Shown: positions 3,841 to 14,679, counted from the stretch's first letter. The stretch is DNA of 37,067 nucleotides from a bacterium (GCA_028824415.1 JAPPDX010000078.1:1-37067), one strand, 5' to 3'. Notes: generated by a model from the sequence alone, not told the origin. Made by a program: numbers and translations.

Positions 3841-3901
3841 GACCCCATGTGGACGGGGGTCTTCGGAGCGCTGCGACGTGTTGGCGTGTACTGTTCGCGG
3901 T

Positions 3902-4041
3902 GCCGTTGAACGTCGGGGTCTTGCCGGACTCCCACTAGTGCGACCGTCTGCGGGGAGGACCTTTCCCGGGGCTCCCTTTGGAGGGTCGCGTGGGCGTTGA
4001 ACGGCGGTTGAGGTCCGTTTCGCGCCGAGGGGAGCCGCTCC
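3902..4041 (+). promoter_or_regulatory. structured 5' leader RNA candidate, copy 1
   Basis: This 140-nt leader ends at the GTG start of the 14-repeat RCC1 gene and is clearly homologous to 13311-13450, which precedes the second RCC1 gene. Predicted elements are an outer stem (GCCGTTGAACG at 3902 with CGTTGAACGGC at 3994, one mismatch), an internal hairpin with a TTGCCG loop, a GCGACC/GGTCGC stem (3940-3945 with 3984-3989), and a GGGGAG/CTCCC hairpin. The 3' end carries a GGGGAG ribosome-binding site. One base pair in the TTGCCG hairpin changes from C-G to T-A between copies, which is compensatory. No known riboswitch class could be assigned. Confidence 0.55.
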
Positions 4042-6291
4042 GTGAGCACCGCCGATCCCGCCGAGCCCGCCCTTTCCGAGTTCGTTGCCCGCCGCCCGTC
4101 CGCGACCGCGCCGGTGGCACCGCGATCGCGGATTTGCCGCGCGCGTCCCCGCCGCGTAACGAGGAGCGGCCTCGCTGCGGCTGTGGCGGTGGTGGCGGTG
4201 CTCGCCGCGGTGGCGGTGTCGTCGCCTGTCGCGGCGCAGTCGGGGGATGATCGCTCCGATGAGGTGCGCATCGTGGCGCGTCGGCTCGCTGATGCACGTC
4301 TCGAGTTCGGCCTGCAACAGCGCGACGCTGGGGACTCCTGGGGCGAGCGGATGCTGCCCACTCAGCGTTTCTTTCCCGCCGACGCCGCGGTGGACCGGTG
4401 GTTGCGGAGTTCGCCGCTGACCGTCCGCGTCGCCGCGTCGGGCGATGAGGACGCCGTCGACGTGGCGGTGCGGATCGTGGCCCGCAAGGTCGCCGACGGG
4501 CGGGTGGAGTTCGGCCTGCGCAAGGTCCAAAGCGACGGCACTCTCAGTGGCACCCTCCTGCCGCGGTCGCGTTTCTTCCCCACCGACGCCGCCGTCGGGC
4601 GGTGGCTGCAGAGCACCCCCGTCTCGGTGACGACCACCCGGCCGGCCAGCGCGGCACCCACGACACCGACCGCGCCGGAGCCCGCGCCGGAGCCTGCGGC
4701 CCGGTACACCGGCGTTGCTGCGGGCTATGCGCACGCCTGTGCGATCGGCTCTGAGGGGTCGGTGGTCTGTTGGGGCGACAACTCCGCGGGCCAGGCGAGC
4801 CCCCCGCCGGGACGGTTCAGCGCCGTGACCGCCGGCGCCTGGTACTCCTGCGCCCTGCGCACCGACGGCGCCATCGCCTGCTGGGGAGAGTCCGACGCCG
4901 TGGCGGAGACGCCAACGAGCGGGCAGTTCGAAGCGGTCGCCGCGGGCTCCTCGCATGCCTGCGCGGTCCGGACAGGCCAGACACTCACATGCTGGGGCAA
5001 CAACGACGACGGCCAGGCCGACGCCCCCGGCGGGCAGTTCGCGGCGGTCGGCGGCGGCAACTTTCACTCCTGCGCCCTGAGCACCGGCGGCACCATCACG
5101 TGCTGGGGCACCGACCCCCACGGCATCTTCGGCCAGCTCGACGCGCCGAGCGGCCAGTTCACCACCCTGTCGGTCGGCAACGCACACTCGTGCGCCCTGC
5201 AGGCCGACGGGACCGCCGCCTGCTGGGGCAGCAACGACACCGGCGAAACCGATCTCCCGTCGGCGCAGTTCAGCGCCGTCGCCGCCGGCGCATCACACAC
5301 CTGCGCCATCCGCACCAGCGGGACGATCGCCTGCACCGGATGGAACTCCGACGGCCAGGCGGATCCCCCCGCCGGGCAGTTCAGCGCCGTCGCCGCCGGC
5401 GGACGCCTGTCGTGCGGACTGGGCACGGACAGCGGCATTCGCTGCTGGGGCCTCGACGTGGCGGGCCCATGGGGCGGGCAATTCACCGCCATCGACGCGG
5501 GAGACGCGCACCTCTGCGGCCTCGGCGCCGACGGCACCGTCTCCTGCGCCGGAGCAGCCGGTCTCTTCGGCCAGTCTGAGGTTCCCGAGGGGCGGTTCAT
5601 CGCGGTCGCCGCCGGTGACCGCCACTCGTGCGGGGTGCGCGCCGATGGTTCCATCGCCTGCTGGGGCAGCACGGCGTACGGCCTGTTGAACGCCCCCACC
5701 GGGGAGTTCAACACCATCGCCGCCGGCGGCTGGCACACCTGCGCGTTGCGCAGCAACGGGACCGCCACCTGCTGGGGTTCGGGTCGCTACGGCGAACTCA
5801 GCCCCCCGCCGGGTGCCTTCAGCGCGCTCGCCGTCGGCTGGTGGCACGTCTGCGGCCTGCGCAGCGACGCCAGCATCGCCTGCTGGGGATCCAACAGCGA
5901 AGCGCAGACGGCAGCACCGGAGGGGAACTTCCAGGCGATCGCCGCCGGCCGGTCGCACTCCTGCGCGCTCCGCAGCGACGGCACCGTCACCTGCTGGGGC
6001 AGCAACCGGTACGGCCAGACCGACGCCCCCAGCGGGGAATTCACCGACATCACCGTCAACGACTGGCACTCATGCGCGCTCCGCACCGACGGCACCGTCA
6101 CCTGCTGGGGAAACAACCCCGACGAAGACTTCGGCCAGGCCGACGCCCCCGAAGATCGGTTCACCGCCGTCACCGCCGGGAGGGGATTCACCTGCGGCCT
6201 GCACGAAGACGGCACCGCGCGTTGCTGGGGCCGGTCACCGTGGACCGCGATCCCCAGCGGCGCGGAGTTCGCCAGCGGCCGGCCTGCGTGA
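4042..6291 (+). CDS. secreted/anchored protein with 14 RCC1-type beta-propeller repeats
   Basis: A 749-residue protein with a long basic N-terminus and then a hydrophobic segment around residues 44-68 ending in VAAQS (signal peptide or anchor). Residues about 73-120 and 148-195 are two copies of a small domain with the pattern RIVAR..ADGRVEFGL...LP..RFFP.DAAV.RWL.S. After a Thr/Pro/Ala linker come fourteen units of about 38 residues of the type F.AVAAG..HSCALR.DGT..CWG, characteristic of RCC1/BLIP-II-like propellers. Fourteen units suit two seven-bladed propellers. Most blades carry two Cys (SCALR and CWG), possibly one disulfide per blade. The start is a GTG behind GGGGAG in the structured leader. 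The next small gene overlaps its stop. Likely role: extracellular binding or interaction; the ligand is unknown. Confidence 0.8.
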   Translation: MSTADPAEPALSEFVARRPSATAPVAPRSRICRARPRRVTRSGLAAAVAVVAVLAAVAVSSPVAAQSGDDRSDEVRIVARRLADARLEFGLQQRDAGDSWGERMLPTQRFFPADAAVDRWLRSSPLTVRVAASGDEDAVDVAVRIVARKVADGRVEFGLRKVQSDGTLSGTLLPRSRFFPTDAAVGRWLQSTPVSVTTTRPASAAPTTPTAPEPAPEPAARYTGVAAGYAHACAIGSEGSVVCWGDNSAGQASPPPGRFSAVTAGAWYSCALRTDGAIACWGESDAVAETPTSGQFEAVAAGSSHACAVRTGQTLTCWGNNDDGQADAPGGQFAAVGGGNFHSCALSTGGTITCWGTDPHGIFGQLDAPSGQFTTLSVGNAHSCALQADGTAACWGSNDTGETDLPSAQFSAVAAGASHTCAIRTSGTIACTGWNSDGQADPPAGQFSAVAAGGRLSCGLGTDSGIRCWGLDVAGPWGGQFTAIDAGDAHLCGLGADGTVSCAGAAGLFGQSEVPEGRFIAVAAGDRHSCGVRADGSIACWGSTAYGLLNAPTGEFNTIAAGGWHTCALRSNGTATCWGSGRYGELSPPPGAFSALAVGWWHVCGLRSDASIACWGSNSEAQTAAPEGNFQAIAAGRSHSCALRSDGTVTCWGSNRYGQTDAPSGEFTDITVNDWHSCALRTDGTVTCWGNNPDEDFGQADAPEDRFTAVTAGRGFTCGLHEDGTARCWGRSPWTAIPSGAEFASGRPA

Positions 6292-7523: not shown

Positions 7524-8621
7524 TCAACGGCGCAGTTCACAGGCGATCGCGTCGGCGCCATCGCGGGCAATCGCGGTGAGCGTCGCCGCGGGCAGCTCTT
7601 CGAGCGTCTCGCTGACGCCGAGGATCGCGGTCTCGTCGCTGTCGAGTTGTCGCTTGGTCAGCAGCCGCCCGAAGTAGGGGGTCCCGCAGATCCGGCAGCT
7701 CCGGCCGCCCTGGGAGAGGTACACACCGGGGCGGCCCCAAGCGTGGACCCTGATCGGCGCCGCCACGTCACCGGCTCCGATCTCGAATCCGCAGCAGATT
7801 CGTGTCTGGTCGGGCCAGATGAACTCGGTGGGACCGTCGCCGTAGTCCAGGACCATGCGGTACAGGGTCAGTGCGGCGTCGCCGGCCAGATACTGCTCAA
7901 CCAGTTCGGCAGGGGTGAGTTCCACGCGGGCCCGCAGCGGCCCCCATCCGTAGCGGCACACCGCGTAGGGGTCGCCGTCGACGCCGCCGACGGGGGTCCA
8001 GTCGTCCAGGGCGTCCCAGGCCGGGGGGCCCGACGCGATCGCCTCGGCGACCGCCGCCAAGTCGAGCTCGTACAGGTCGCTGTCGGAGCGGAACCGGTCC
8101 CACAGCGTCTGCGGAGCCTTGTCGCGGTCTCCGAACTCGTCGCCGACGTGCACGAAGTCGGCGCAGTCCCGCAGCAGCGCCGCGACGTCGCTGCGCAGGC
8201 CGGCGTTGAGGTGCGCCGCCAACTCGCCGAGGGTCGCGTCGGCGAGCGCTGCCTCGTCGCGCAGCTCGCTCACCGGTCGAGGCCACCCAGCGGCGTTGGT
8301 GTCGGTGAACGGGTCGAACCGGAAGTTCCACCTCGACCACCGCCACCCGTGCCGCCCGAAGCCTCGATCGTCGCGGCTCAGCGCGGCGCCAAGCACGCCG
8401 GGCCGCTGCTCGGCGACGGCCAGCACGGTGCGCTGCTTGCGCTCGTCGTCCTCGTTGTCGTCGCTGTCGACCGCGGCGTCGTCGGGATGCACGAAGTGCC
8501 AAAGGTGACGCAGGCCCTGAGCGAGCCGCTCCTCGGTCTTGGCGCTGAGCGCCAACACCGCCTCCTCCGGCGTAGACACCTCGACGCCAATTGAGCCTGT
8601 CCGGCCATCGATGATCCGCAT
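7524..8621 (-). CDS. hypothetical protein, 365 aa
   Basis: A soluble, acidic 365-residue protein starting MRIIDGRTGSIGVEVSTPEE. The start is supported by a strong GAGAGGAGATCAT ribosome-binding site immediately upstream. Visible features are a negatively charged stretch around residues 50-62 (DSDDNEDDE), an aromatic-rich WRWSRWNFRFDPF segment around 94-106, and a CRICGTPYFGR motif near residue 310. A second Cys pair (ICCGFE) lies about 40 residues upstream, so a metal site is possible. No signal peptide or membrane segment is seen. No family is recognised. It lies upstream of, and on the same strand as, the phosphoesterase remnant and the 160-residue protein, and may have shared an operon with them. 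Confidence 0.6.
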   Translation of the reverse strand: MRIIDGRTGSIGVEVSTPEEAVLALSAKTEERLAQGLRHLWHFVHPDDAAVDSDDNEDDERKQRTVLAVAEQRPGVLGAALSRDDRGFGRHGWRWSRWNFRFDPFTDTNAAGWPRPVSELRDEAALADATLGELAAHLNAGLRSDVAALLRDCADFVHVGDEFGDRDKAPQTLWDRFRSDSDLYELDLAAVAEAIASGPPAWDALDDWTPVGGVDGDPYAVCRYGWGPLRARVELTPAELVEQYLAGDAALTLYRMVLDYGDGPTEFIWPDQTRICCGFEIGAGDVAAPIRVHAWGRPGVYLSQGGRSCRICGTPYFGRLLTKRQLDSDETAILGVSETLEELPAATLTAIARDGADAIACELRR

Positions 8622-9086
8622 GATGATCTCCTCTCGAATTGGGGAACCGGGGCCCGCAAGCTACGAACCCCCACCCCGCCACAAGCGTCCCCCGAACCGT
8701 TCTCGAACCGTCGCGAACACCGCCCGACCCCGCCGACCTCGCGGCGCCCTCCCCCACCCCGCGCGCGGTCCCGAAGGGTCCTCCCATCATGAGGTCGGCG
8801 TGCGCCGCGGCGATCCCGGACCAGACAGCAACCAGAAACCGTCGCTGTCGGCGAATCGCCGACCCAACCCGGCGACACGGCCAGCGTCACCCGTCGGCGT
8901 GTCGCCCTCACCCGGCTCGCGGCGCCAGCCATGGACTGCTGGGTGGACCGTCCGAGTTCTCCCCAGCCGCGCGCTCCGCCGCGGCCTAGACGCGGCGACC
9001 ACGCAACCGCGGAGTCAAACCACGGCGGCCCTCAGCGTGGTGGCGCCCTGGAACCAGAACACGCCCCGGCGCTGGAGAACCGGCGG
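8622..9086. other. intergenic region, probable promoter of the 365-aa gene
   Basis: This 465-nt gap holds the ribosome-binding site and presumably the promoter of the minus-strand gene. It includes a direct repeat of CGAACCGT (near 8693 and 8705) that could be an operator. The remainder is GC-rich and open in several frames, but no frame shows a recognisable protein or start signal. Confidence 0.4.
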
Positions 9087-9863
9087 CTACGACGGGTTGT
9101 AGCTGCCGGGGAATCGCCGGTCGAAGGCGGCGGCGAGTTCAGCCTGACCCTCCGGCGGGGCGGCGATCGTCTGTGCCGCCTCGGCCTCTTCGGAGGTCCC
9201 GCTGGCGGCGGCTTCTTCGTCGAGGCGGGCGCTGCGGAGGAGTTTGTAGATGGTGCTGCGGTGCCAGCGCCCGCCGCGGGGGGTCTCTATTCCCTCCGCG
9301 GTGAGGTGGTCGGCGATCTGCTGGAACGTCTTGCCGGCGGTGCGCAACTCCCCCACGAGGCGACGCGCCTCAGCGGAGTGCTCGACTGGTCGACCAAGGC
9401 GTGTGCCGCCGGCTTGGGCGGCAGCGATTCCGGCACGGGCGCGGGTACTGCGCCAGCGGTGTTCCACCCGGGCGGCTTCGGCGAGCAGCGCCGCGGCAGT
9501 CTCGCCGCTGTCGGAGGGCAGTTCGAAGCCCTCTTCGACCACGACGATCACCCAGCGCTGTCGATAGCTGCGCTCGACCAGGTCGGCCCAGACCCGCACG
9601 CTGTGGCTAACCCGATCCAGTCGGGCGACCACGAGCGCGCCTGCGTCGCCACCGGCGAGATCCACAAGCGCAGCACCCAGCGCGGGCCGCTCGTCAGGAA
9701 CGACTGAGCCGTCGATACGCCTATCGAGTGCGGCCGCGTGTATGCGCCAGCCCCGCTCGGCGACGGCTGCGGCAAGGGTGTCGTACTGCGCCGCGAGCAT
9801 CAGAACGTCTCCGACCAGTTCCTCGCGAGAGGCGCGCGCATAGGCGATGGCGCCGACGCTCAT
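9087..9863 (-). CDS. serine recombinase (resolvase/invertase family)
   Basis: A 258-residue protein from the ATG at 9863 (MSVGAIAYARASREE). The YARAS motif holds the expected catalytic Ser and preceding Arg of resolvase/invertase enzymes. Further blocks are ERPALGAALVDL and VVARLDRVSHS (family consensus LDRLxR), followed by a helical arm around TRARAGIAAAQAGG. A C-terminal helix-turn-helix (FQQIADHLTAEGI, then TPRGGRWHRSTIYKLL) binds DNA. The second Arg of the LDRLxR motif (Arg71 in gamma-delta resolvase) is His here, which may reduce activity. The catalytic domain is N-terminal, unlike IS607 TnpA, where it follows a MerR-like HTH. The gene is divergent from the ParA operon across an AT-rich gap. 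Confidence 0.75.
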   Translation of the reverse strand: MSVGAIAYARASREELVGDVLMLAAQYDTLAAAVAERGWRIHAAALDRRIDGSVVPDERPALGAALVDLAGGDAGALVVARLDRVSHSVRVWADLVERSYRQRWVIVVVEEGFELPSDSGETAAALLAEAARVEHRWRSTRARAGIAAAQAGGTRLGRPVEHSAEARRLVGELRTAGKTFQQIADHLTAEGIETPRGGRWHRSTIYKLLRSARLDEEAAASGTSEEAEAAQTIAAPPEGQAELAAAFDRRFPGSYNPS

Positions 9864-10100
9864 GAGCCGCAATCTAGCGATGCCTCGAGAGGAGGTTGGA
9901 AGTCGTTGATGTTTACTATATATTTGTTTTATCACCAGTCAGCGAGCGCCGCGGCTCCCACGATCGAGCGACTCCGACCGCGCAGGCCATCCAGAGGACG
10001 CGCACGGCGGACACGCACCGCCCGTATCCCTCGCTTCCAACGAGGTAGGTGACGGCCGCTGGGCGGTCGCGCAGCGGGTCAGCGAACCAAGGGAGGACAT
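9864..10100. promoter_or_regulatory. divergent promoter/operator region with nested inverted repeats
   Basis: An AT-rich island at 9907-9934 stands out from the GC-rich surroundings and probably carries the recombinase promoter, and perhaps that of parA. Closer to parA are a hairpin CCTCG-7 nt-CGAGG (10029-10045) and an outer inverted repeat ACCGCCC (10017-10023) / GGGCGGT (10061-10067). ParA partners of the ribbon-helix-helix type usually bind sites just upstream of their operon, so this is the natural place for a centromere/operator. A GGGAGG ribosome-binding site is at 10091-10096. Confidence 0.45.
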
Positions 10101-10976
10101 GTGCCTAGAGTCGTCGCGTTCGTGAGCGCGAAGGGCGGTGTCGGCAAGACGACACTGTGCGCCAACTTCGCGGCTCAGGCGGTGGGGCGTGTGCACCCCG
10201 AGCGCGTGCTGGGCGTCGACCTGGATCCCTCCGGCGACCTGGCGTGGGACCTCGGCTACCGCGGCGAGCCACCCGACGACGAGGGCGCCGCGCTCGCAAA
10301 CGCGCTGTTGCGCGGCGCGACGCCTCCCCCGGCTCCGATCGGGCTCTGCGGTCTGGATGTCCTCGCCGGCGGGCCGCGTCTGCGCTTCGCGACAAACGTC
10401 AAGGCCTCTCTGGCTTCTGACGCCGTCGGCGCGCTCGCCGAGCTTCTGCGGAGTCTCTCCAGCGGCTATGGCCTCGTCGTCGTGGACTGCCCGCCGGGGC
10501 TTGGGGCGATGACCCGCTTGGCGCTCGCCGCCGCTGACGGCGTCGTCATCCCGACCCACGCGGATGACGCGTCGCTCGCTGCGATCGGAGCGCTCGCCCC
10601 GGTCTGGCGGGACATCAGAGCGCACCACAACGCCCGCCTGGCGCTGCTCGGTGTCGTACTGACGCAAGTGCCGAGCAAGTTGCGCCGCCTTGAGGTGCAA
10701 CTGCGCGACGACCTGCGCACCATCGGCGGGAGCCACCTGCGCGTGTTCCGGACCGTCGTTCGCGCCAATCTCGAGGCGGCTTGCGGGGCACGCCGGCTGG
10801 GTCTCACCGCCGACGAGTACGCCCACGGGGCCGCCCAGCACGCCGACGGCACCGACAGCGACGCGCGCATCCGCGCCGCTCGCGCCCTCGCCGACGACTA
10901 CCGGCACCTCACCGGCGAGATCCTCAACCGCCTCCACAGCCACCGCGCCTCGACCGCCGAGGGGGCCCGACCATGA
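10101..10976 (+). CDS. ParA/MinD-family partition ATPase
   Basis: A 291-residue ATPase. The deviant Walker A box KGGVGKTT (residues 11-18) with the signature Lys11 is intact. VLGVDLDPSGDLAWDLG gives the switch I/A' Asp, and LVVVDCPPGLG is the Walker B region. VPSKLRRLEVQL in the C-terminal half matches a typical ParA segment. ParA dimers bind DNA nonspecifically and position plasmids or chromosomal regions with a DNA-binding partner. There is no N-terminal HTH, so autoregulation probably depends on the next gene. The GTG at 10101 is preceded by GGGAGG. The stop overlaps the next start (ATGA). A stand-alone ParA of this length beside a recombinase suggests a mobile or plasmid-derived origin. 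Confidence 0.85.
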   Translation: MPRVVAFVSAKGGVGKTTLCANFAAQAVGRVHPERVLGVDLDPSGDLAWDLGYRGEPPDDEGAALANALLRGATPPPAPIGLCGLDVLAGGPRLRFATNVKASLASDAVGALAELLRSLSSGYGLVVVDCPPGLGAMTRLALAAADGVVIPTHADDASLAAIGALAPVWRDIRAHHNARLALLGVVLTQVPSKLRRLEVQLRDDLRTIGGSHLRVFRTVVRANLEAACGARRLGLTADEYAHGAAQHADGTDSDARIRAARALADDYRHLTGEILNRLHSHRASTAEGARP

Positions 10977-11431
10977 GCGTCCCGCACCGCCCCGGGCCGC
11001 CGCGCATCGACGCCGCCGCGTTCGCGCCGCCGCGCCCCAGCGACCCGCCGACAGCACCACCGCCGGGCTCGTCGCGCAAGAAATCCGTTGTCGTCTTGGT
11101 CGATGTGGACCTGCTTGTGAGGCTCCGGGCGCGTTGCGCCACGTGGCGGCGGTCCCCCAGCGAGGTGATCCTCACCGCCCATCTCGACCTCGCCGAGCGG
11201 CTCGGAGAGGAACTGAGACCAACTGCCGCCGATCAGCGGCGCGTCGCGTTGGGCCTGCCCCAGGCCGCCGCCAGAAGGCGCCTGGGCCCCGGCAAACCGC
11301 TGTCCCTGTGGCTGTCACCGGTGTCGCTCGCCGAACTCGACGCCGCCGCGGCGGCCGCCGACATCACCCGCCGCCGCTACATCACCGCGCTGGTCGAGGC
11401 TCTCCTCGCCCGGGCCGACGAACCGGCATGA
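10973..11431 (+). CDS. ParA partner protein, ribbon-helix-helix-like DNA-binding
   Basis: A 152-residue protein starting within the parA stop (ATGA, 10973-10976). After a disordered Pro-rich tail (residues 1-35), two similar segments follow. The first is SVVVLVDVDLLVRLRARCAT with PSEVILTAHLDLAERL; the second is LSLWLSPVSLAELDAAAAAA with RRRYITALVEALLA. Each has a short strand followed by two helices with the spacing of a ribbon-helix-helix or MetJ/Arc-like fold, so the protein may carry tandem DNA-binding modules. Small RHH proteins encoded directly after ParA (ParG, omega) act as centromere-binding and autorepressor proteins. I infer that role from position and pattern; the sequence match is weak. 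Confidence 0.55.
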   Translation: MSVPHRPGPPRIDAAAFAPPRPSDPPTAPPPGSSRKKSVVVLVDVDLLVRLRARCATWRRSPSEVILTAHLDLAERLGEELRPTAADQRRVALGLPQAAARRRLGPGKPLSLWLSPVSLAELDAAAAAADITRRRYITALVEALLARADEPA

Positions 11432-11523
11432 CCACACGTGACGCCAGCGCCGACGTGGCCGCAGCCCACCGCTTGGACCCAGCAGGCCGGGAGGCGCCCG
11501 GCGTGTCCCAGCAAGGAGCTGCC

Positions 11524-12993
11524 GTGAGCCCTTCGACGGTGCGGCGCATGGCCCCCGACCCGAGCGACGGGGCCAGGGGGGCCGCTGGTGGGCCTGTTGG
11601 GCTGGTGGCGTTCAAGTTCCGGCTGTATCCGTCGCCGGAGGCGGCGCGTCTCCTGGAGCGGTACGCGGCCACGGAGCGCGCGATCTACAACCGGGTCGTG
11701 GAGTACCAGTACGAGTTGCGCGCGCTGCAGCAGCGGCGGCGCCGACACGGCGGCCGCATGGGTTTGCCCCGAGCCGAGTTCGACTACAGCGACATCAACG
11801 CGTGGGCCAAAGCGGAGGCGCCGTGGCTGGGGGGGATCCCCGGAAGCGTGCGCTCCCAGGCCGAGCGGATCGCGTACCGCGCGCTCGTGGACTCCTTGCG
11901 CCTGCCGGGCCGACGACAGGCGAGGTTCCGCCGCCGCGGCGGCGGAACCGATGGGTTCTCCTGGCAGGCGGCGACCGCCTCCGGGGAGGTGCGCAAGATC
12001 AACAAGCGCTGGCACGAGGTGCGCCTGCCCCGAGCCCGCCGCGCGCCGGTGGTGTGGTGCCGGGTGCGCGTGGATACCGGCCGCGAGCCGCCCGCCGCCG
12101 CCTACCGCGCCGGCAAGGTGCTGCGCATCACCCGCGACGCGGCGGGCACGTGGTGGCTCACCATGACCGCGCCGGCGGCCCCTGAGCGGGCCGCGCCGGC
12201 CGGTTCGAGTTGTGGCCTGGACCTGGGCGTGATCCACACGCTGACCCTCGCCGACCACACCGGGCGGGTCCTGCACCTGAAGATGCCCCGACCGCGGTCC
12301 GACGCCAAGGCGCGGCGCCTCGTGGATCTGCAGCGCTCCCAGAGTCGCTCCCGCCTCGCCAACCCGTGCGAACAACCGCCGTGCCCCCACACAACGGGCG
12401 GCAGTTGTTGGCGGACCTCGCGCCGCTACCAGCAGCGCCGCCGGGAGATCGCGGTGCTGCGCCGTAAGGCGCGGCGCCGCGCCCGCAACTGGATCGAGAA
12501 GGTCACCACCCACATCGCCGACCGCTACCGCCTCGTCGGCGTGGAGGACCTGTCGGTGCGCGCCCTCACCGCGTCCGCGGCGGGCACCCTCGCAGCGCCG
12601 GGACGCAACGTCGCCGCCAAACGGAGCCTGAACCGGGGAATCCGCGAACAGCGGTGGGCGACGATCCTGCGCCGCCTCGACGACAAGATCACCGCCCGGG
12701 GCGGACAACTCGTGCGCGTCCCCGCCGCCAACACCTCCCGGCGCTGCCACCGCTGCGGCCACACCGCCGCCGCCAACCGCACCACCCGAGCGCTGTTCTG
12801 CTGCGTGGCGTGTGGCCACCGCGACGGCGCCGACGCCAACGCCGCACAGAACATCCACGACCTCGCCCTGCAAGGGCATCCCCCAGCGCGTGGGGGAACG
12901 GCCACGGCGCCCACAGGCGCCACGCCGGCCGAAACGGACGCCGAGGCCCGCCCCGAGGCGGCCGACGACGCGTCAATCACCCCCGCCGCCTAA
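11524..12993 (+). CDS. tnpB: TnpB, IS605/IS607-type RNA-guided nuclease
   Basis: A 489-residue TnpB from the GTG at 11524, preceded at good spacing by AAGGAG (11513-11518). An in-frame ATG at 11428 overlaps the previous stop and would add 32 residues. The canonical TnpB start (VAFKFRLYPSPEAARLLERY) lies about 28 residues in. All three RuvC acidic residues are present: D233 (GLDLG), E341 (GVEDL) and D437 (DGADANAAQN). The zinc ribbon (C408xxC411...C427xxC430) is intact. Between RuvC-I and RuvC-II an extra Cys-rich insert (PCEQPPCPHTTGGSC) is seen. TnpB uses an RNA from the element's 3' end to cut matching DNA, favouring element retention. No TnpA transposase of the Y1 type is adjacent; the gene instead follows ParA and its partner in one operon. 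Confidence 0.88.
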   Translation: MSPSTVRRMAPDPSDGARGAAGGPVGLVAFKFRLYPSPEAARLLERYAATERAIYNRVVEYQYELRALQQRRRRHGGRMGLPRAEFDYSDINAWAKAEAPWLGGIPGSVRSQAERIAYRALVDSLRLPGRRQARFRRRGGGTDGFSWQAATASGEVRKINKRWHEVRLPRARRAPVVWCRVRVDTGREPPAAAYRAGKVLRITRDAAGTWWLTMTAPAAPERAAPAGSSCGLDLGVIHTLTLADHTGRVLHLKMPRPRSDAKARRLVDLQRSQSRSRLANPCEQPPCPHTTGGSCWRTSRRYQQRRREIAVLRRKARRRARNWIEKVTTHIADRYRLVGVEDLSVRALTASAAGTLAAPGRNVAAKRSLNRGIREQRWATILRRLDDKITARGGQLVRVPAANTSRRCHRCGHTAAANRTTRALFCCVACGHRDGADANAAQNIHDLALQGHPPARGGTATAPTGATPAETDAEARPEAADDASITPAA

Positions 12994-13080
12994 CCACCCG
13001 GCGGCGAGGAACCCGACGACAACCCGAGACACACAACGACGCCGCGCACAGCCGCGGCAGCTGTCTCGGCGACCGTCGGC
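12870..13080 (+). ncRNA. possible omega/reRNA region at the tnpB 3' end
   Basis: TnpB guide RNAs normally derive from the 3' end of tnpB and the adjoining element end. Here the 3' coding end, which encodes a non-conserved tail after the RuvC-III motif, folds into at least two hairpins: CCCCCA-GCGCG-TGGGGG (12880-12896) and GGCGCC-CACA-GGCGCC (12906-12921). The 310 nt from the stop to the structured leader at 13311 contain no gene. The RNA and its guide boundary are inferred only from family knowledge and position; no element end could be fixed. Confidence 0.3.
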
Positions 13081-13310
13081 GAACGCGAGATGTGGGGATT
13101 CGGTTAGCAACTCCCCCACCAACCCCCCTCGCGGGGCCGGACACACCGCCGGCGCCAAGCTCTCCGCGCCGAGGAGGCTCAACGGCGCCGACAGAACCAC
13201 GAGGCGCCGCGCCGGCGCTAGCCGGGGCGCGCCCAATTCGACGGGCGATCCCCTCCTCGGGCGATTGCGGCTCTCAGTGGCCCCCACCGGCGGCGTGTAA
13301 TCTCTCGGTT

Positions 13311-13450
13311 GCCGTTGAACGCCGGAGCCTTGCCGGGCTCCGCGGAAGCGACCTGTTTGCGGGGAGGACCTTTACCGGGGCTCCCTTCGGAGGGTCGCGT
13401 GGGCGTTCAACGGCAATTGAAGTCCGATCCGCCCCGAAGGGAGCCACCCC
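13311..13450 (+). promoter_or_regulatory. structured 5' leader RNA candidate, copy 2
   Basis: Homologous to 3902-4041. A perfect 13-bp outer stem pairs 13311-13323 with 13402-13414. Inside lie a GGAGCC-TTGCCG-GGCTCC hairpin (13324-13341), a GCGACC/GGTCGC stem (13348-13353 with 13393-13398) and a GGGAG/CTCCC hairpin. The 3' end carries an AAGGGAG ribosome-binding site before the GTG at 13451. The leader sits upstream of another secreted RCC1-repeat gene, so the pairing of leader and gene type is conserved within the window. It could be a riboswitch, a protein-binding leader or a translation-control element. Confidence 0.6.
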
Positions 13451-13582
13451 GTGAGCACCACCGAACCTCCCGAGGTCGCCCGCGCTGACAGCCACGCTCG
13501 GCGCCCGACACCCACCGCGGCCACGCCGACCGCGCCCGCCCGCGCATCACTCGCCGCGCGCCTGGACGAGGCCCGGCGATGA
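13451..13582 (+). CDS. 43-aa leader ORF upstream of the RCC1 lipoprotein
   Basis: Starts at a GTG with AAGGGAG upstream and reads MSTTEPPEVARADSHARRPT, ending ARLDEARR. Its stop overlaps the ATG of the lipoprotein gene (ATGA, 13579-13582). The start context and first residues match the N-terminus of the 14-repeat RCC1 protein (MSTADPAEPA...ARRPS) encoded after leader copy 1. It is therefore either a conserved translated leader whose end feeds ribosomes to the next gene, or the detached N-terminus of a once-continuous gene. It has no signal peptide. Confidence 0.5.
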   Translation: MSTTEPPEVARADSHARRPTPTAATPTAPARASLAARLDEARR

Positions 13583-14679
13583 GCGACGACAGCGCCGCTC
13601 CCGGAGACGGGGCGAAGATCGATTTCGAGGCGATGGGCGACTGCCCATCGATGTCGAATGCGCGTCGGCTTCGCCACGTCGTCGTGCTGCTGGTGCTGGT
13701 GCTGTTGGGATCGGCGTGCGGCGGCGAGCCTGAGCCTGAGTCCGGCGCCGAAGCTGGCGCGCAGACCAACGCGTCGCGGGTCGGCTCGGGGTCCGAAGAT
13801 GCGGGCGATCAGGGGCCGAACTCCGACGCCGGGACCTCGCCCAGGGCCACAAGCTCCGAACCACCACCCCCACCCACGACCATCGACGTCGCCTTCAGCC
13901 CTCTCAGCGTCGGCGGGGGCCACTCATGCTGGTTGCCTGGTGACGGCACCATCACCTGCTGGGGCGACAACCGCCACGGCCAGCTCGAGGCGCCCGACGG
14001 CCAGTTCACCGCCGTCAGCGCCGGCGCGGCTCATTCGTGCGGCGTGCGCGGCGACGGCACCGTCACCTGCTGGGGAGGCAACGACGACGGGCAGACCGAT
14101 GCGCCCGACGGCGTGTTCCGCGCCGTCAGCGCCGGCTGGGGCCACTCGTGCGGCGTGCGCGGCGGCGGCACCATCACCTGCTGGGGCGACGGCCGGCAGG
14201 GCAAGCTCGAGGCCCCCGACGGCCAGTTCACCGCCGTCAGCGCCGGCGACCGTTTCTCCTGTGGGCTGCGCACCGACGGCACCGTCACCTGCTGGGGAGG
14301 CAGCGGGTTCTGGGGGCCGCCTACTCCGCCCGACGGCGTCTTCACCGCCATCAGCGCCGGCACAGAGCATTTCTGCGGGGTGCGCGGCGACGGCACCATC
14401 ACCTGCTGGGGCCACGACTCCTCCGCGAAGACTCGTGCGCCCGACGGCGCATTCACCGCCGTCAGCGCCGGCGACAACCATTCCTGCGGGGTGCGCTCAG
14501 ATGACACCATCACCTGCTGGGGCGGCTACATGGGCAGAAGGACTGTCGCACCCGACGGACAGTTCACCGCCGTCAGCGCCGGCGACGACTATTCCTGCGG
14601 GGTGCGCCCCGATGGCACCATTGCGTGCTGGGGCGAAAACATCAACTACCGGAACGCCGATACGCCCGGGCAAGGCTAA
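13579..14679 (+). CDS. lipoprotein with a 7-repeat RCC1-type propeller
   Basis: A 366-residue protein. Residues about 30-52 form a signal segment (RHVVVLLVLVLLGSACGG) with a lipobox-like Cys, so it is probably lipid-anchored outside the membrane. An acidic, Ser/Pro-rich linker follows to about residue 97. Exactly seven units of the type F.AVSAG..HSCGVRGDGTITCWG then fit one complete seven-bladed propeller, with two Cys per blade. The start ATG overlaps the stop of the 43-aa ORF, indicating translational coupling under the structured leader. The next gene begins 42 nt downstream and may be co-transcribed. Function: probably extracellular binding; unknown partner. Confidence 0.8.
   Translation: MSDDSAAPGDGAKIDFEAMGDCPSMSNARRLRHVVVLLVLVLLGSACGGEPEPESGAEAGAQTNASRVGSGSEDAGDQGPNSDAGTSPRATSSEPPPPPTTIDVAFSPLSVGGGHSCWLPGDGTITCWGDNRHGQLEAPDGQFTAVSAGAAHSCGVRGDGTVTCWGGNDDGQTDAPDGVFRAVSAGWGHSCGVRGGGTITCWGDGRQGKLEAPDGQFTAVSAGDRFSCGLRTDGTVTCWGGSGFWGPPTPPDGVFTAISAGTEHFCGVRGDGTITCWGHDSSAKTRAPDGAFTAVSAGDNHSCGVRSDDTITCWGGYMGRRTVAPDGQFTAVSAGDDYSCGVRPDGTIACWGENINYRNADTPGQG

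What the first reader, a model, noticed from the sequence alone, without database searches (positions are those of the whole stretch)
9087..12993. Recombinase / ParA / RHH-like / TnpB cassette
Three genes (ParA ATPase, small RHH-like partner, TnpB) are packed with ATGA overlaps at both junctions, if the upstream TnpB ATG is counted. They are transcribed away from a serine recombinase. TnpB is known from IS605/IS607 elements next to TnpA, not as the last gene of a partition operon. A partition ATPase linked to an RNA-guided nuclease and a site-specific recombinase could be a new mobile element type, or a plasmid/ICE maintenance module in which TnpB destroys element-free sites. Gene identities come from motifs; the functional coupling is inference.
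Basis: partly seen in the sequence, partly recalled or inferred. Interest (0 to 1): 0.8.

Follow-up and report, generated by a model that had tools for sequence, protein, structure and literature searches.

The report
Plasmid-partition operon carrying an RNA-guided nuclease
In two species of one uncultured actinobacterial genus, genes that normally help plasmids share out their copies at cell division are joined in one apparent operon to a gene for an RNA-guided DNA-cutting enzyme with its guide RNA, a pairing not found in any of the other genomes searched.

Summary
A serine resolvase (-) faces a tight ParA – small protein – TnpB operon (+). The small protein is a tandem ribbon-helix-helix (RHH) DNA binder. 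ParA plus a tandem-RHH partner is the arrangement of actinobacterial plasmid partition operons; the closest ParA relatives lie on Arthrobacter and Rhodococcus plasmids. TnpB keeps its RuvC D/E/D and zinc cysteines. It is followed by an omegaRNA-like region ending at a sharp boundary (13090), after which paralogues differ (the guide).

The linkage is not a one-off. A paralogue on another contig of the same genome (ParA 75%, RHH 74%, TnpB 54% identical) and a near-copy in a sister species carry all four genes in the same order. Synonymous divergence is alike for all four genes, and the three TnpBs form one fully supported clade, so TnpB joined before the duplication. No IS605/IS607 left end was found between RHH and tnpB.

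Outside this genus the pairing was not found: 72 other TnpB loci lacked it, and genome, plasmid and viral scans gave no further case. The resolvase looks separable: between the species, identity jumps at the parA start codon.

Most likely this is a chromosomally lodged, plasmid-derived maintenance module in which TnpB favours module-bearing DNA. That function is inferred.

The parts
9087..9863 (-). serine resolvase/invertase-type recombinase: N-terminal catalytic domain plus C-terminal Recombinase/HTH part; not an IS607 TnpA layout (ORF could extend to GTG 9935)
   Evidence: Pfam Resolvase 9.6e-20 and Recombinase 2.4e-7; DNA invertase and Tn3 resolvase chains match; homologues in C72 and G003, 71-74% identical
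9896..9942 (.). overlapping divergent sigma70-like promoters for resolvase and parA
   Evidence: consensus scan, 2 found versus 0.0 in shuffles; not evidence of function
10101..10976 (+). ParA partition ATPase, deviant Walker A KGGVGKTT
   Evidence: Pfam AAA_31 1e-20; Soj/segregation protein chains in PDB 6.5e-21; nearest relatives outside the genus are actinobacterial plasmid ParAs
10973..11431 (+). tandem ribbon-helix-helix DNA-binding protein, probable centromere-binding partner of ParA, with a conserved flexible N-terminal tail
   Evidence: AF2 model strand-helix-helix twice; best matches are F-plasmid relaxosome chains Z 9.8 and single-chain Arc Z 7.4; proteins with two RHH-like segments follow plasmid parAs
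11524..12993 (+). TnpB RNA-guided nuclease; RuvC D265/E373/D469 and four zinc Cys intact (numbering from ATG 11428); the alternative start 11428 overlaps rhh
   Evidence: NCBIfam guided_TnpB 150.6 bits against cut-off 100; catalytic residues align with solved TnpB-type proteins
12972..13090 (+). omegaRNA-like scaffold: GTCAATCAC, hairpin, AACC-GA, hairpin, CG(T/A)CGGCGAACGCGAGA
   Evidence: fold z-scores -3.4, -4.1, -3.5 in three copies; conserved anchors and similar architecture with changed helix sequence
13091..13110 (+). putative guide segment; homology with the C72 paralogue stops at 13090
   Evidence: alignment; same sequence in G003, different in C72

Best explanation
A plasmid-type partition operon (ParA plus tandem-RHH centromere-binding protein) has acquired TnpB with its omegaRNA as last gene and now sits in chromosomal variable regions. 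Shown: gene identities, operon layout, recurrence in a diverged paralogue, intact RuvC residues, an omegaRNA-like 3' region. Inferred: one transcript from the promoter upstream of parA makes ParA, RHH and TnpB; TnpB trims the 3' end of that transcript into omegaRNA whose guide is the DNA just right of the module; ParA/RHH segregate the replicon that carries it; and TnpB cuts otherwise identical DNA that lacks the module, so module-bearing copies win. The nearby resolvase would resolve multimers or rearrange the region, but it evolves separately.
For: The same four-gene order occurs in C134, C72 and G003. dS is alike for resolvase, parA, rhh and tnpB between paralogues (0.70, 0.53, 0.51, 0.69) with dN/dS below 1. 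TnpBs form a 100/100 clade. Nearest ParAs are on actinobacterial plasmids with a small, often tandem-RHH-like, partner gene downstream. The RHH model is tandem RHH. RuvC residues are intact. omegaRNA-like region. Published: TnpB processes its own mRNA into omegaRNA (PMC10278001) and drives IS-bearing plasmids through a population (PMC11870625).
Against: The copies appear chromosomal and no replication gene was seen, so active partition of anything is unproven. No repeat array resembling a centromere was found beside parA. The guide finds no target besides its own locus in eight genomes of the genus, apart from one 2-mismatch site about as expected by chance. TnpB is under weaker constraint (dN/dS 0.62) than parA (0.31). 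The association is known from one genus only. No transcript data.
Confidence: 0.45

Rival explanations
1. Hitch-hiking: a TnpB-only insertion sequence landed once behind a plasmid par operon in an ancestor. Its short left end is hidden in the rhh 3' end, and duplication carried the neighbours along. TnpB acts for its own insertion only and has no functional link to ParA.
For: TnpB is common as a lone IS gene (general knowledge); tnpB diverges faster than parA and rhh at the protein level; a right-end/guide boundary at 13090 is what an IS would leave; only one acquisition event is needed.
Against: tnpB starts about 25 nt after the rhh stop in C72 (tight in the window too), leaving little room for a left end; it has stayed open and linked through divergence of dS about 0.7 in two paralogues; no further copies of this TnpB in the genome, and no other exact copy of its omegaRNA end.
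Confidence: 0.35
2. All four genes make one mobile element: the resolvase moves or integrates a resolvase-parA-rhh-tnpB unit, and TnpB protects against its loss.
For: Resolvase, parA, rhh and tnpB are together in all three copies; C72 lies in a chromosomal variable island.
Against: Between window and G003 the resolvase is 74% identical while parA is 97%, with the break at the parA start codon. The flanking 365-aa gene is shared too. No terminal repeats, att sites or empty sites were found.
Confidence: 0.12
3. Domesticated regulator: TnpB and its guide silence or cut a host site and are kept for regulation, as with TldR proteins.
For: Linked to a DNA-binding protein; intact ORF retained; one seed-matched near-target on C12.
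Against: RuvC triad is intact, unlike nuclease-dead TldR; the guide differs between paralogues; the single near-target is about what chance gives.
Confidence: 0.05

Closest known systems
[quoted passage not shown]
   Same: ParA with deviant Walker A; small RHH partner directly downstream with overlapping ATGA; nearest sequence relatives on Arthrobacter, Rhodococcus, Curtobacterium and Microbacterium plasmids
   Different: a third gene, tnpB, follows; no centromere repeats recognised; copies appear to sit in chromosomal contigs
TnpB/omegaRNA of IS200/IS605 and IS607 elements
   Same: TnpB domains, RuvC residues, zinc finger, omegaRNA-like region overlapping the tnpB 3' end, guide after the right boundary
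   Different: no TnpA (neither Y1 nor IS607-type serine) in the unit; no left end found; tnpB is the last gene of a partition operon
TnpB gene drive of insertion sequences in plasmids (PMC11870625)
   Same: the proposed logic: TnpB cuts copies lacking the element so that bearing copies fix
   Different: there an IS within a plasmid; here tnpB is joined to a partition operon and the effect is not shown
Plasmid resolvase modules
   Same: serine resolvase divergent from parA; weak relatives on Rhodococcus plasmids
   Different: resolvase separable by recombination history; res site not identified

Membership tests
Type-I RHH-ParB partition system | ParA-type Walker ATPase | tested here: met
   KGGVGKT motif in all three copies
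Type-I RHH-ParB partition system | RHH DNA-binding partner encoded directly downstream | tested here: met
   fold; ATGA overlap; model confidence moderate, pLDDT about 71-86 in the first RHH and 73-80 in the second
Type-I RHH-ParB partition system | centromere repeats near the operon | tested here: inconclusive
   no repeat array in 9860-10110 or in the equivalent stretches of the other copies; a site elsewhere is not excluded
Type-I RHH-ParB partition system | stabilises a replicon | not testable with these tools
   needs a plasmid-loss assay
TnpB RNA-guided nuclease | RuvC D/E/D and zinc-ribbon cysteines | tested here: met
   D265, E373, D469, C440, C443, C459, C462; guided_TnpB above cut-off
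TnpB RNA-guided nuclease | structured omegaRNA at the tnpB 3' end followed by a guide at a homology boundary | tested here: met
   three sequences only, two of them nearly identical; no Rfam match in the window
TnpB RNA-guided nuclease | RNA-guided cleavage | not testable with these tools
   needs biochemistry
IS200/IS605 element | Y1 TnpA or recognisable left end next to tnpB | tested here: not met
   rhh lies directly upstream; gap about 25 nt in C72, ATGA overlap or 92 nt in the window
IS607 element | TnpA serine recombinase with N-terminal HTH directly upstream of and co-directional with tnpB | tested here: not met
   recombinase is divergent, two genes away, with N-terminal catalytic and C-terminal Recombinase domain
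CRISPR type V-U | CRISPR array nearby | tested here: not met
   no repeats with CRISPR spacing, although the best PADLOC profile is Cas12u4
TldR (nuclease-dead TnpB regulator) | degenerate RuvC | tested here: not met
   triad intact

The most novel reading that the evidence does not exclude
A dedicated replicon-retention system in which partition (ParA with tandem-RHH protein) and RNA-guided counter-selection (TnpB/omegaRNA against copies lacking the module) are expressed from one operon: segregation plus guided clearing of copies that lack the module.
Probability: 0.25. Interest if true: 0.8.

Novelty: new variant of a known kind. Interest (0 to 1): 0.5.

Why it matters
TnpB is known as an IS accessory that protects its own insertion. 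A TnpB locked into a partition operon and kept there through a duplication would be a case of an RNA-guided nuclease recruited to the upkeep of a larger element. It would link two plasmid-stability strategies (active segregation and elimination of copies lacking the element) in one transcript, and it can be tested by expressing one operon in a laboratory host.

Tried and rejected
Element ends: three-way comparison of the flanks gave no inverted or direct terminal repeats and no empty site. Guide targets: one 2-mismatch hit on C12, about what chance predicts, and none for the C72 guide besides itself. Other copies of the omegaRNA end: the pattern hit all three known loci; the many other hits with 1-2 mismatches were not followed one by one. 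ParA next to TnpB elsewhere: one contig (L104) has both, but ParA there is the chromosomal ParAB pair and the TnpBs are fragments. RHH relatives in plasmids, viral contigs and a class sample: none. CRISPR array: none. The downstream palindrome 13309-13416 is not an element end: a homologous stretch precedes other RCC1-repeat genes too. SCP2-type ParT was considered as the partner class, but it has a ParB-like DNA-binding M domain (PMC12260392) whereas this protein is RHH. Published ParA-TnpB operons: none found in the paper searches.

Full report
Observation. Translation and profile searches confirm four intact genes: a serine recombinase on the minus strand (9087-9863/9935), and on the plus strand ParA (10101-10976), a 152-residue protein (10973-11431) and TnpB (to 12993). 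The ParA/RHH junction is a true ATGA overlap. The RHH/TnpB ATGA is present too, but GTG 11524 with AAGGAG five bases upstream is the better start, because the C72 paralogue starts at a similar place behind its own ribosome-binding site, about 25 nt after the rhh stop. Overlapping divergent promoter-like sites sit between recombinase and parA; none was found between rhh and tnpB, and no terminator before the end of tnpB.

What the parts are. ParA is a Soj/ParA ATPase. Its nearest relatives outside this genus are on actinobacterial plasmids. In the five plasmids opened, a small gene follows parA, twice with the same four-base overlap, and in at least three of them (Arthrobacter, Paenarthrobacter, Rhodococcus) its sequence shows two RHH-like segments (read by eye; Microbacterium looks similar). 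The window protein has no significant sequence-family match, but its AlphaFold model has two strand-helix-helix units (residues 37-79 and 108-148; pLDDT about 71-86 and 73-80, overall 66.8). The best structural matches are chains of the F-plasmid relaxosome (Z 9.8; from general knowledge these are TraY, itself a tandem RHH protein) and single-chain Arc (Z 7.4), with CopG and ParG matching the second unit. The three homologues share the tail MSxPxRPGPPRIDAAAFAPP; by analogy with known RHH-ParBs this could contact ParA (inference). ParA plus RHH is thus a type-I RHH-ParB partition pair in the nomenclature of PMC13245405.

TnpB. It passes the NCBIfam guided_TnpB cut-off and aligns with solved TnpB-type proteins, with the RuvC D265/E373/D469 and the four zinc cysteines intact. 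It reaches neither the IS200 nor the IS607 exception model's cut-off. Downstream, the window and the C72 paralogue share short anchors separated by hairpins whose sequences differ; all three copies fold better than shuffles (z -3.4, -4.1, -3.5). Homology ends at CGGCGAACGCGAGA (13090). The next bases are the same in the sister species and different in C72, which is what an omegaRNA scaffold followed by a guide looks like. Covariation support is limited (3 of 35 pairs with a two-sided change among three sequences, many pairs broken in C72).

Recurrence. The window's genome has a second full cassette on contig C72 in the same order. A sister-species MAG (VXXM01000020, Acidimicrobiia SB0668_bin_6) has a third, 95-97% identical in parA, rhh and tnpB. 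Between the two paralogues dS is 0.70 (recombinase), 0.53 (parA), 0.51 (rhh) and 0.69 (tnpB), with dN/dS 0.26, 0.31, 0.32 and 0.62. Similar synonymous depth, and a fully supported clade of the three TnpBs on a long stem, mean that tnpB was most likely in place before the duplication. It has been kept open since, under weaker constraint than its partners.

How far it reaches. RHH searches of 99 relatives and 395 class members found no other convincing case. The genome-contig scan, which reaches close relatives only, found only the sister species. In 72 other TnpB loci from relatives, a phylum sample and viral contigs, no cassette-like ParA or recombinase is adjacent; the one co-occurrence is the chromosomal ParAB next to TnpB fragments. 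Many of those loci carry only about 1.5 kb of flank. Plasmid and viral searches gave no RHH homologue.

The recombinase. It is a resolvase/invertase-type enzyme, not an IS607 TnpA by domain order. Identity between the window and G003 is about 50% in the recombinase-parA intergenic stretch and jumps to 94-100% from the parA start codon on, staying high to 15919, well beyond tnpB. The recombinase itself is 74% identical. The operon and the recombinase therefore do not share one history between species; recombination at a resolvase site in the intergenic stretch would explain the break, but that is inference.

Location. C72 carries the cassette in a variable island with DISARM-like and type IIG restriction genes, next to a backbone shared with another species of the genus. 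The window has ABC-transporter and enolase-like genes downstream (named from their sequence, not tested by profile). Neither looks like a complete plasmid. The module is therefore probably a plasmid relic or island component.

Mechanism. Most likely ParA/RHH act (or acted) in segregation, and TnpB, made from the same transcript and guided by the right flank, cuts copies of the locus that lack the module. TnpB self-processing of its mRNA (PMC10278001) and TnpB gene drive in plasmids (PMC11870625) make this plausible. No step of it is shown here. The main rival is a single IS-derived tnpB hitch-hiking behind a par operon; what I have does not exclude it, though the tight junction and long retention speak against a recent chance insertion.

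Noticed in passing
window 3883-4041 and 13309-13450: A strong imperfect palindrome (15-nt perfect arms TTGCCGTTGAACGCC/GGCGTTCAACGGCAA at 13309-13416, large hairpin) precedes the downstream RCC1-repeat gene; homologous stretches precede RCC1 genes at 3883 and on C72. Leader RNA or mobile repeat, unknown.
   Followed up: partly
window 4183-6291 and 13579-14679: Secreted-looking RCC1-repeat proteins; DNA matches to them are very numerous in all eight genomes of the genus.
   Followed up: no
window 7524-8621: A 365-aa family without any Pfam or NCBIfam match lies next to the recombinase in all three copies and has a further copy on C72 (L003:14945-16069).
   Followed up: partly
window 8737-8868: About 140 bp present in the window but absent in both other copies, between the 365-aa gene and the recombinase gene.
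   Followed up: no
L082:4985-18719 (G000 C72): Defence-gene cluster: DrmD-like helicase, UvrD-type helicase, type IIG restriction-methylase, DUF262-like protein, in the same island as the second cassette.
   Followed up: partly
L089:6284-8374 and L080:18541-19275: A Gp49-like toxin with an XRE-type antitoxin; in G007 it sits beside a tyrosine integrase, and DNA matches recur across the genus, also next to the G003 cassette block.
   Followed up: partly
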